32,833 nt of DNA from Bacteroidota bacterium (GTDB lineage: Bacteria; Bacteroidota; Bacteroidia; JABDFU01): assembly GCA_016183775.1 (NCBI GenBank), contig JACPDY010000052.1, positions 1 through 32,833 of the forward strand. Direction: 5' to 3'. Position 1 is the first letter of the stretch. Every line of letters starts with the position of its first letter. A program made the position numbers and the translations under genes. Positions 9,571-12,757 of this stretch are shown here, in pieces. The notes under the pieces were generated by a model. The model did no database searches, was not told where the DNA came from, and saw only the letters and a program-made list of their open reading frames with translations.

Positions 9571-11091
9571 CTATTTTATCTCCGTACAATCAAATGTATT
9601 CTCGTTCACATAATATAACCTGTCTTCCTCCTGTTTAAAATGAAATCCGAACACGGAGTTGAACACAAACCGGAATGTATTTACAGGTGTTATTGTTGCA
9701 GGTACTTTATTGTTGAATTCCCGGGGAAGATGGATAGCATTTAAAATGCTGTTTGCTTCATTTATTTTATCACTTCCGCCAAGCATATTAAAACCATGGT
9801 CGCCCTGGATAATGATCACAGGCGGAACAGCGGAATTCGCAAGAATCGAATCCGTAATTTTCATTATCAGATCATCGGTATAGATCAATTGGTCCAAATA
9901 CTTTTCCTTATCTCCGATGCTGTCGCTTTCAATTGCCCTTAACTCTCCCTTCCTATTATAATGATAGGGATAGTGCGGCAACAAAAAATGTGCATAAACA
10001 AATGTAGCCTTCTTGTTCTCTTTTGATCCTTCAATAAATTCATTCAGTTTTGTAAGCACACGCTTATTACCAGCCACATTGTCTTCCTCCTGAAAAAAAT
10101 TATCAATAACTTTCCCAAACCCCAATGACAGGTCCGTTAACACCTTGCCGGGAAAAGTTTTCCTCCACAGGTACCTGCTCAGGGAAAACGTATAATAGCG
10201 GGTATATAACCTCGGCTGCGCACATAAATCAAACGGCGAAAGGTTAATTATATCATAACCCAAAGTATGAAATAATCCTGCCGCTTTGTTTTCTCTTATC
10301 ACCTTGCCTAAAGAATTTATGCGGGCCCCTATCCCCTGTTTGTATTCAGGTAGTTTGTTTAAGTGCTGCATACTAAAGGCGGAGGCAAGTGAGTATAGTG
10401 TGAAATTGTAATTGCTTCGGGCATTTTTAACCACATAAAAATTCCTGGATTCGAGCTGTTTCACGAAAGATGTATCCGCGTAATCCCAATATTTTTTCAG
10501 ACTCTCTGACCCGGTATGCATATCAAACAACAGGTAATATACATTTGGCAAACCGGCGGGAAGGGTTACAGGAAGATCGACCTGCTCATCCGCATACGTA
10601 TAGTCATTCCACGCTTTATTGCCAAAGGGGTAATAAGCGATTTTGATAAGCTCTGTAAACAAAAGAAAAAAAGCAAAAGAAAAAAGGAATTGATTGAAAC
10701 GTACGAATGTTCTCCTGCTCTTTATAATTTTTACCACAAAAAAAATAATGAGTGTGGGAAAAAGAATTAATATATACCTGTATCGTAAAACAGATTGGCA
10801 GACCGCGGCTCCCGGAAACAAGTCGGATGCAAAACCAAAAAAAAGAACGGGCATGAGAATAGCAGTTGTTATGAGCGCCGGCTTAATACTATTCCCCGTT
10901 ATCTTTTTACATACAAAGAAAAATGCTGAAACAAAGATCAGCATCCCTGCCAAAGGCCCAATCAACGAGCCTGGATTAAGGTAGTCCTGCATTTCATGAA
11001 AGCCGGCAACAACAAAAAACGCGGTAAAAAGAAGCGAAGATAAGATCGGATACCTGAAAATAACAGCCTTTACGCTCTCAATTATTCTCAT
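9571..11091 (-). CDS. Alkaline-phosphatase-superfamily (sulfatase/LTA-synthase-like) membrane protein
   Basis: A 506-aa protein with about five membrane helices in residues 10-155 and an extracytoplasmic catalytic domain from about 180. The domain opens with VYYLLFDMHTG (Asp190, metal ligand), followed by RSNYNFTLYSLASAF, where Thr231 sits where the nucleophile of LTA-synthase-like enzymes is expected. YAHFLLPHYPYH (His368, His373) and IIIQGDHGFN (Asp431, His432) supply later ligands. The superfamily moves phosphoglycerol or phosphoethanolamine groups, or hydrolyses sulfate or phosphate esters, on envelope lipids and glycans; which applies here cannot be read off. The gene follows the methyltransferase by 3 bp and is the last of a three-gene operon, suggesting joint modification of one surface molecule. 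Its stop faces purN 18 bp away. Confidence 0.8.
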   Translation of the reverse strand: MRIIESVKAVIFRYPILSSLLFTAFFVVAGFHEMQDYLNPGSLIGPLAGMLIFVSAFFFVCKKITGNSIKPALITTAILMPVLFFGFASDLFPGAAVCQSVLRYRYILILFPTLIIFFVVKIIKSRRTFVRFNQFLFSFAFFLLFTELIKIAYYPFGNKAWNDYTYADEQVDLPVTLPAGLPNVYYLLFDMHTGSESLKKYWDYADTSFVKQLESRNFYVVKNARSNYNFTLYSLASAFSMQHLNKLPEYKQGIGARINSLGKVIRENKAAGLFHTLGYDIINLSPFDLCAQPRLYTRYYTFSLSRYLWRKTFPGKVLTDLSLGFGKVIDNFFQEEDNVAGNKRVLTKLNEFIEGSKENKKATFVYAHFLLPHYPYHYNRKGELRAIESDSIGDKEKYLDQLIYTDDLIMKITDSILANSAVPPVIIIQGDHGFNMLGGSDKINEANSILNAIHLPREFNNKVPATITPVNTFRFVFNSVFGFHFKQEEDRLYYVNENTFDCTEIK

Positions 11092-11094
11092 ACT

Positions 11095-12492
11095 TCAATC
11101 GGTTATGCGACGCATTAAATACAAGACCCTTTCAGTGCCTGCTAGTTTTATTTTTTCTTTGATCGCAAAATAATTAGAAAATTCAGCTTCAAAGTTCTCA
11201 ACAGTATAATCTGGTATAATGTCCGCTTTAGACCTGAATAATTTTTGCGCATTCGCATCCTCCTTTGGTACAAACTCAATCACAAGATGTTTTGTTATGT
11301 CGTTGAAAAAGGATGCTATTCTGTTTAAAGGTAAATTATTTGTGATCGCCAGGTGGTGGACGAGAGCCAATGCCATTACCAGATCAGCGGCTCCTCTTTT
11401 AAAAACAGGATCCCGCTCCTTGTTCTCCCAGCCCAGACCTGGGCTGGGGTTCATAACATCTATCACCAAAGGCAAAATATTGGTACTCCCATTCTCCCTG
11501 CAATCAGTATATATTTTATCCACGCACTCATATGAACTATCCATCGATACCACGAAGCTGTTTTTAAGAGAATCCAGTTTGCTGAAAACGCCTGTATTTG
11601 CCCCGAGATCCCAGACACAATGGGGACTTACTTGTTCACAGTAATTATTAACCATTTTGATCTTTTCCGGGATGTACGCTCCGGGCAATTCAATATCAGC
11701 ATAATAGTTGTACCAGGAAGCAACATGCCCCGGAGATCTTAACCCTGCAATTGCTTTACCAAGACTTTCAACCAACCCACTAAATGCGTTCCGGCTGAAT
11801 TTTTTCTTCCCTGAGTTTCTATCAATCTTTTTCTCAGAAAATTTATTTTGACCAACCAAATGGAGGTGAATATGTATAAGAATACCTGTGTTAAACCGGC
11901 TGCCTGCAGGAAGTAATGAAGCGGCCAGGTCAAGCGGGATCCCATCCAGGTTGTTTTTGAACAGCTGAATGAGCCGCGGATCTTTAAAACTCATTAAAGC
12001 CAGCGGAGCTAAAAAATGCTGGCAAAATTGTTTGTAAGCCACCCAGGGCTCTCCTTCCTTGCAGATCTCAAATGACAGTGTGTCGATCAAAACAGGTTTG
12101 CCCTCATTAAACTGTATATTAAAAGCGCTGCTGTCTTTCAATGTCATGCCATGCGCCAGTGCTATCCTCTGTATTTCAAGGACGAGAAAAGCCGCATCTT
12201 TCAATTGATTGAACGACCATTCATACGGATAGGAAATAAACTTTATTCTTTTCGGCTTTAAGAGTTTAAAATATTCCGTGGCGTCCGGTGAAACATCAAC
12301 CTCATCATGATGAATAAGGAAACCCAGAGCGGTAAGCTTTGAATAAAGTCCTGATCGGATAAGTTGTAAATAATTCTCTTTGTAGGAAAAGGCAACCGAG
12401 CGGTACAGGATATTCTCTCTTAAAAAAACCCGGCCATCCGGATCACGGAATGAGCCCGGGATCGCAATAATAGAATTGACATTATCGGGCAT
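11095..12492 (-). CDS. Class I SAM-dependent methyltransferase with a kinase-like N-terminal domain
   Basis: A 465-aa protein in two parts. Residues about 285-460 form a Rossmann methyltransferase with the SAM-binding motif VWDLGANTGVFS (Asp295 to Gly301) and ADLVMALALVHHL as a later motif. Residues 1-250 are usually left unnamed, but LKDSSAFNIQF followed by PVLIDTLSF places Asp120, Asn125 and Asp137 at the spacing of the catalytic loop and metal-binding Asp of protein and aminoglycoside kinases (D-x4-N-x11-D). That reading is mine and needs a structure comparison. The gene overlaps the small membrane peptide gene by 11 bp and is followed after 3 bp by the alkaline-phosphatase-type protein gene, so all three are translated from one message. 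Substrate unknown; a surface lipid or glycan is a reasonable guess. Confidence 0.82.
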   Translation of the reverse strand: MPDNVNSIIAIPGSFRDPDGRVFLRENILYRSVAFSYKENYLQLIRSGLYSKLTALGFLIHHDEVDVSPDATEYFKLLKPKRIKFISYPYEWSFNQLKDAAFLVLEIQRIALAHGMTLKDSSAFNIQFNEGKPVLIDTLSFEICKEGEPWVAYKQFCQHFLAPLALMSFKDPRLIQLFKNNLDGIPLDLAASLLPAGSRFNTGILIHIHLHLVGQNKFSEKKIDRNSGKKKFSRNAFSGLVESLGKAIAGLRSPGHVASWYNYYADIELPGAYIPEKIKMVNNYCEQVSPHCVWDLGANTGVFSKLDSLKNSFVVSMDSSYECVDKIYTDCRENGSTNILPLVIDVMNPSPGLGWENKERDPVFKRGAADLVMALALVHHLAITNNLPLNRIASFFNDITKHLVIEFVPKEDANAQKLFRSKADIIPDYTVENFEAEFSNYFAIKEKIKLAGTERVLYLMRRITD

Positions 12493-12697
12493 CTTTACTT
12501 TTCTTTATCAATTTAAAGGCCCGCACGGCCAGTGATTTTAAAATATCTTTAATGGTTTTAAAATAAAAAGTCAATGCAAGGAATCCACCCAGCAAAAGCT
12601 GAAAAATGTAACTGCCGCTACCCGGATCAATATATTGGGCATGCGCGCTGAACGCAAAAGATAAAAATATATTCAGAAAAAATAATTTGTCCTTCAT
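12482..12697 (-). CDS. Small IDPG-motif membrane peptide
   Basis: A 71-aa protein that starts with a signal peptide (to about Ala20), continues with YIDPGSGSYIFQ, has one membrane helix (about residues 28-45), and ends in a lysine/arginine-rich cytoplasmic tail. The start is the ATG at 12697; a longer ORF to 12748 would run through the terminator hairpin and lacks a signal-like start. Small proteins with an (Y)IDPGxGS motif just after a signal peptide are, as I recall, often next to methyltransferase and alkaline-phosphatase-type genes, but have no known function. It heads the three-gene operon and overlaps the next gene by 11 bp, which suggests coupled translation and a role as a subunit or anchor. 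Confidence 0.75.
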   Translation of the reverse strand: MKDKLFFLNIFLSFAFSAHAQYIDPGSGSYIFQLLLGGFLALTFYFKTIKDILKSLAVRAFKLIKKSKDAR

Positions 12698-12726
12698 TAT
12701 ACATCTAAATAGATATAAATATATAT

Positions 12727-12757
12727 AAAAAGAGGCGGATGTATGCATCCGCCTCTT
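12727..12757 (-). terminator. Rho-independent terminator of the matrixin-like protease gene
   Basis: A perfect 12-bp stem (12730-12741 and 12746-12757) with a 4-nt loop. In the minus direction it is followed by TTT and then ATATAT, and it lies 22 bp after the stop codon at 12780. The plus-strand side lacks a T run, so it works mainly on the minus strand. It separates the protease gene from the three-gene operon downstream. Confidence 0.8.

What the first reader, a model, noticed from the sequence alone, without database searches (positions are those of the whole stretch)
11095..12492. Kinase-like active-site pattern in the N-terminal half of a methyltransferase
The first 250 residues of this protein carry Asp120, Asn125 and Asp137 in LKDSSAFNIQF...PVLIDTLSF. 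This is the D-x4-N-x11-D layout of the catalytic loop and metal site of aminoglycoside/protein kinases (HxDxxxxN ... D). The histidine of the loop is replaced by Leu. If correct, this is a two-headed enzyme (phosphate transfer plus methylation) that is normally annotated only as a methyltransferase.
Basis: inference. Interest (0 to 1): 0.62.

Follow-up and report, generated by a model that had tools for sequence, protein, structure and literature searches.

The report
NoeA-type kinase–methyltransferase fusion enzyme
The protein labelled only as a methyltransferase does carry a kinase-like half with an intact predicted active site, and it belongs to a predicted family already published in 2022 (rhizobial NoeA and relatives); the added clue is that its methyltransferase half shares the phosphate-handling residues of WbdD, which suggests it adds a phosphate to a surface molecule and then methylates that phosphate.

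Summary
D120, N125 and D137 are where stated and are invariant in 81 of 81 proteins aligned. The spacing alone would be weak evidence: 30 of 439 unrelated ORFs of 200 aa or more contain it. The fold carries the case: an AlphaFold2 model of residues 1-268 (mean pLDDT 91.8) matches protein-kinase-fold structures in PDB, CK2, PknG, RIO and AceK among the 50 listed hits.

It is not new in kind. The protein is a full-length homologue (33%) of rhizobial NoeA, and PMC9758233 (2022) already proposed the NoeA/Lani_1194 family as kinase plus class I methyltransferase, with Arg in place of the usual Lys (R31 here, invariant).

Two additions. (1) The best PDB sequence match of the family profile is the methyltransferase domain of WbdD. 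WbdD's three phosphate-handling residues (H132, H133, R203) align with invariant H379, H380 and R455. The best reading is therefore phosphorylation followed by methylation of that phosphate. (2) The gene sits in a compact cassette with a small YxDPGxGS membrane protein and an alkaline-phosphatase-superfamily membrane protein (NoeB-like): all three adjacent in 70 of 83 loci.

No activity has been shown for any member in the papers I could search.

The parts
11095..12492 (-). NoeA-like protein, 465 aa: N-terminal kinase-like domain (about 1-250) and C-terminal class I SAM methyltransferase domain (about 255-465)
   Evidence: 33% identity over 462 columns to S. meliloti NoeA; full model pLDDT 93, pTM 0.93; 81 proteins aligned
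11743..12492 (-). kinase-like domain, residues 1-250
   Evidence: domain model of residues 1-268, mean pLDDT 91.8; Foldseek PDB hits are protein-kinase-fold entries, best E 3.5e-5, TM-scores modest at 0.3-0.46
12433..12456 (-). G13-S14-F15-R16-D17-P18-D19-G20, proposed glycine-loop equivalent; D17 in 80/81 proteins (the exception has a gap)
   Evidence: conservation; assignment as the glycine loop is inference, the paper describes such a region for the family
12400..12402 (-). R31, likely counterpart of the kinase beta-3 lysine (K72 of PKA); invariant in alignment A1, 80/81 with one gap in the larger set
   Evidence: the paper assigns R38 of Lani_1194 to K72; equivalence R31 = R38 is inferred, not aligned here
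12211..12231 (-). Y88-P-Y-E-W-S-F94, near-invariant, at the position of the kinase hinge
   Evidence: hinge assignment is inference from the order of secondary structure
12118..12135 (-). catalytic-loop equivalent D120-x4-N125
   Evidence: 81/81 invariant
12082..12084 (-). D137, metal-site (DFG-type) aspartate, in IDTLSF
   Evidence: 81/81 invariant
11095..11730 (-). class I SAM methyltransferase domain, residues 255-465
   Evidence: Pfam methyltransferase models hit other family members, though not the window protein itself; best PDB sequence match of the profile is WbdD
11353..11358 (-). H379-H380, align with WbdD H132-H133
   Evidence: 81/81 invariant; hhalign
11128..11130 (-). R455, aligns with WbdD R203
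   Evidence: 81/81 invariant; same alignment with three hhalign settings, in a weakly aligned stretch
12482..12748 (-). small membrane protein (88 aa from the ORF list; an internal Met gives a shorter form) with YIDPGSGS motif; overlaps the start of the NoeA-like gene by 11 bases
   Evidence: counterpart lies between nodL and noeA in S. meliloti, BLASTP E 3e-8; adjacent upstream in 73/83 loci. No 19-residue stretch passes the hydropathy cut-off of 1.6 used, so the membrane assignment rests on reading the sequence
9571..11091 (-). NoeB-like membrane protein, 506 aa, alkaline-phosphatase/sulfatase superfamily; starts 3 bases after the NoeA-like stop codon
   Evidence: Pfam Sulfatase E 1.6e-7; hydrophobic N-terminal stretches up to residue 153; D190 in 74/75 and D431-H432 in 73/75 relatives, T231 is Thr in 64/75 and Ser in 10/75 with no Cys seen

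Best explanation
This is a NoeA-family bifunctional enzyme that works like the O9a chain-capping enzyme WbdD with the domain order reversed. The N-terminal kinase-like domain transfers phosphate from ATP to a hydroxyl of a membrane-associated acceptor, most likely a lipid-linked or surface glycan. The C-terminal domain then methylates that phosphate with SAM, leaving a methyl phosphodiester. The small membrane protein may hold the enzyme at the membrane, and the NoeB-like protein, with its catalytic domain probably on the outer face, acts on the phosphorylated product (transfer or trimming). Shown here: kinase-like fold, invariant active-site residues, WbdD-like methyltransferase with aligned phosphate-site residues, conserved cassette. 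Inferred: catalysis, the order of the two steps, the acceptor, the roles of both partners.
For: Kinase fold and invariant D/N/D plus R31. Both halves are under purifying selection against the nearest relative (dN/dS 0.12 and 0.06), with the kinase half as conserved as the whole (mean column identity 44% and 43%). The only PDB sequences matched at E <= 0.01 by the family profile are WbdD chains, in the methyltransferase domain; hhalign against WbdD gives probability 95.5-97. WbdD H132, H133 and R203 are each required for phosphate methylation and R203 is not found in NodS or RebM (PMC3482155); their counterparts here are invariant. Conserved cassette. Flanking genes in a sample of relatives include sugar-nucleotide and polysaccharide genes.
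Against: No biochemical activity is known for any member in the papers searched. The kinase half has no detectable sequence similarity to solved kinases or to the WbdD kinase domain. The alpha-C glutamate could not be identified by the 2022 authors and none stands out in my conservation list. The WbdD match is modest (E 5e-4), and R455-R203 lies in a low-confidence part of the alignment. Two adjacent His also occur in methyltransferases such as NodS that do not act on phosphate. In the window itself the cassette sits among genes with no sign of a polysaccharide cluster.
Confidence: 0.5

Rival explanations
1. The kinase-like half is a real, active kinase but the methyl group goes elsewhere (a sugar hydroxyl or amine on the same acceptor), so the two activities are separate decorations.
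For: Most class I methyltransferases do not methylate phosphate; NodS, an N-methyltransferase, is among the Foldseek hits of the full model and can carry the His pair.
Against: Invariant Arg aligned with WbdD R203, and WbdD as the best sequence match in PDB.
Confidence: 0.25
2. The kinase-like half is a pseudokinase: it keeps the fold and perhaps binds nucleotide, but serves as a substrate-binding or regulatory module for the methyltransferase.
For: The usual lysine is Arg, the loop His is Leu, and no alpha-C glutamate has been identified.
Against: All three catalytic and metal residues are invariant across 81 proteins from several phyla; a scaffold need not keep exactly these. The 2022 authors class the family as having a conserved active site, in contrast to two families they call pseudokinases.
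Confidence: 0.15
3. The kinase-like half transfers something other than a phosphate, for example AMP, as some atypical kinase-fold proteins do.
For: Atypical N-lobe (SFRDPxG loop with an invariant Asp, Arg for Lys). From general knowledge, the kinase fold can catalyse AMP transfer in SelO.
Against: No specific feature of an AMP-transferring kinase was tested or found; phosphate transfer is the common activity of the fold.
Confidence: 0.07

Closest known systems
NoeA of Sinorhizobium meliloti (nodL-noeA-noeB, nod box n5 operon)
   Same: Full-length homologue, 33% identity, D/N/D, H-H and R all conserved in the aligned sequence; small YLDPGTGS protein directly upstream and an alkaline-phosphatase-fold protein directly downstream in both
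   Different: S. meliloti noeA is in a symbiosis operon with nodL; the window gene is in a Bacteroidia-type genome beside unrelated genes
Lani_1194 family of predicted kinase-methyltransferases (PMC9758233, 2022)
   Same: The paper names NoeA as homologue, gives the same domain order, an Arg for the kinase Lys, conserved D/N/D in atypical motifs, and a NoeB-like neighbour
   Different: No direct alignment to Lani_1194 was made here; the paper's main text, as found by term search, does not connect this family's methyltransferase to the phosphate site of WbdD
WbdD of E. coli O9a (chain-terminating kinase-methyltransferase)
   Same: Two-activity design; methyltransferase domain related by profile, with the phosphate-site residues aligned
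   Different: Order reversed (methyltransferase first in WbdD); kinase domains not detectably related by sequence; no WbdD-type C-terminal extension here

Membership tests
NoeA / Lani_1194 family | full-length homology to NoeA | tested here: met
   BLASTP E 6e-76, 33% over 462 columns
NoeA / Lani_1194 family | kinase-fold domain followed by class I SAM methyltransferase | tested here: met
   models and fold searches
NoeA / Lani_1194 family | conserved Asp, Asn, Asp of the kinase active site | tested here: met
   81/81
NoeA / Lani_1194 family | Arg in place of the kinase Lys | tested here: inconclusive
   R31 is invariant in A1 and lies in a strand before the first long helix; its match to R38 of Lani_1194 was not aligned
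NoeA / Lani_1194 family | alkaline-phosphatase-fold neighbour (NoeB / Lani_1195) | tested here: met
   9571-11091; 62/67 loci with enough flank
protein-kinase-like fold | kinase fold | tested here: met
   Foldseek PDB hits for the domain model, by prediction only
protein-kinase-like fold | alpha-C glutamate ion pair | tested here: not met
   no Glu in the 35-46 helix reaches the 85% conservation list; the 2022 paper reports the same for the family
protein-kinase-like fold | phosphotransfer activity | not testable with these tools
   needs an enzyme assay
WbdD family | phosphate-site residues H132, H133, R203 in the methyltransferase | tested here: met
   hhalign, three settings; counterparts 81/81 invariant; R203 region weakly aligned
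WbdD family | methyltransferase first, kinase second | tested here: not met
   order is kinase then methyltransferase
WbdD family | homologous kinase domain | tested here: not met
   no alignment of the kinase half to WbdD

The most novel reading that the evidence does not exclude
A widespread, independently assembled phosphate-methylating capping enzyme: kinase plus WbdD-type phosphate methyltransferase in reverse order, working in a three-part membrane cassette with an alkaline-phosphatase-superfamily partner, and the missing biochemical activity behind the noeA/noeB host-range genes of rhizobia.
Probability: 0.3. Interest if true: 0.65.

Novelty: new member of a known kind. Interest (0 to 1): 0.4.

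Why it matters
NoeA is a host-range gene for nodulation of particular Medicago species (Ardourel 1995, cited), and in the papers found here its modification is still described only as hypothesised. If the family makes a methyl phosphate, the product becomes a defined thing to look for by 31P NMR or mass spectrometry, in rhizobia and in the flavobacteria and other groups that carry the same cassette. It also shows that annotation as 'SAM-dependent methyltransferase' hides half of these proteins: neither Pfam nor NCBIfam named the kinase half.

Tried and rejected
Sequence-only searches of the kinase half gave nothing: no Pfam match for the window protein, none above noise for the kinase half in 49 members, no PDB sequence with the domain profile even at E 10, no alignment to WbdD's kinase. 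The spacing pattern alone was rejected as evidence because 30 of 439 unrelated ORFs of 200 aa or more have it. Phages as carriers: no match. In the BFVD fold search the best hit was a giant-virus protein named as a methyltransferase; its sequence was not compared.

Full report
What was checked. The ORF at 11095-12492 (-) encodes 465 residues. D120, N125 and D137 have the stated spacing. That spacing also turns up in 30 of 439 unrelated ORFs of 200 aa or more from the window and the fetched loci, so it needs independent support.

Conservation. Relatives came from a scan of genome contigs (66 loci) and of 395 genomes of the phylum. In an alignment of 81 proteins D120, N125 and D137 are invariant. 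In the 49-sequence alignment A1 the invariant residues of the first half also include D17, R31, S140, W150 and P163. The relatives were found through short peptide patterns or similarity to this protein, so the set leans towards its own relatives; it still spans several phyla by record title. Against its nearest relative (88% identity) dN/dS is 0.12 for residues 1-250 and 0.06 for 251-465, so both halves are constrained.

Fold. The full model has mean pLDDT 93.0 and pTM 0.93, the model of residues 1-268 mean pLDDT 91.8. Foldseek with the domain model lists protein-kinase-fold entries in PDB (PknG, CK2, PLK4, JAK1, RIO, AceK and others), best E 3.5e-5, TM-scores 0.3-0.46; one listed entry is a chain of a pre-40S ribosome whose identity the row does not give. 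In BFVD most named hits are viral protein kinases. TM-scores are modest: the C-lobe core is kinase-like, the N-lobe is divergent. Coordinates of the model were not available, so the geometry of the active site was not measured.

What it is. tblastn against plasmids found 65 records, mostly Sinorhizobium, several annotated as noeA. The S. meliloti protein aligns over its whole length at 33%. PMC9758233 already describes this family (named Lani_1194 there, with NoeA as homologue) as a kinase domain plus class I methyltransferase, with Arg for the kinase Lys, D/N/D conserved, no identifiable alpha-C Glu, 94% of about two thousand homologues with both domains, and a NoeB-like neighbour. The finding is therefore a member of a published, predicted family.

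Link to WbdD. The A1 profile matched four PDB sequences at E <= 0.01, all WbdD, in the methyltransferase domain; the next match was at 0.012. hhalign against WbdD of E. coli HS gives probability 95.5 to 97. WbdD numbering was checked on that sequence. H132-H133 align with H379-H380, and R203 with R455 in all three settings run; the C-terminal stretch is weakly aligned. [quoted passage not shown] The kinase halves are not detectably related. From this I infer methylation of a phosphate placed by the kinase half.

Cassette. Profiles of the two window neighbours, iterated on ORFs of the loci, found the small YxDPGxGS protein within 200 bases upstream in 73 of 83 loci, the alkaline-phosphatase-superfamily protein within 200 bases downstream in 62 of 67 with enough flank, and both in 70 of 83. 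In several exceptions a copy lies elsewhere in the locus. The PMC9758233 frequencies for neighbours of Lani_1194, 65% and 38%, were obtained on a different and wider set. The NoeB-like protein keeps D190 and D431-H432 and has Thr or Ser at position 231, which fits a phosphatase or phosphotransferase better than a formylglycine sulfatase; this is inference from residues. Its relation to NoeB itself is weak by BLASTP (E 5e-4) but recovered by the iterated profile (4.1e-48).

Context. A scan of 69 flanking proteins from a chosen sample of loci matched sugar-nucleotide dehydratases and epimerases, polysaccharide biosynthesis proteins and glycosyltransferases among other families, which points to surface glycans in some relatives. 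In the window the neighbours scanned are a histidine kinase, formyltransferase, desaturase, MnmG, NusA, IF-2 and others, with no polysaccharide cluster.

Host-range evidence from the literature. noeA was truncated in S. meliloti M162, which failed to nodulate 17 of 27 M. truncatula genotypes (PMC4053727); the authors call the link a suggestion. NoeA and NoeB are described as hypothesised to modify the Nod factor (PMC9048898).

Verdict. Observation confirmed, interpretation supported, already proposed in print for the family. The new element is the phosphate-methylation reading, supported by sequence comparison only.

Noticed in passing
L087 and L088 (IMG/VR contigs): Two contigs of the viral collection encode a relative at 42-44% identity; in L088 a short ORF resembling the small membrane protein lies upstream, and both have a hydrophobic ORF downstream. 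Whether these contigs are viral was not examined.
   Followed up: partly
BFVD A0A481Z196 (Mimivirus LCMiAC01): Best viral fold match of the kinase-like domain (E 8.5e-8, TMq 0.55) is a giant-virus protein named 'Methyltransferase domain protein', possibly another kinase-methyltransferase.
   Followed up: no
L045, L053, L055, L019, L020, L023 and others: Several flavobacterial loci carry two to four copies of the NoeB-like gene around one NoeA-like gene.
   Followed up: no
window 12482-12748 (-): The small protein has a signal-peptide-like start followed by YIDPGSGS and a basic tail; some relatives begin almost directly at the motif.
   Followed up: partly
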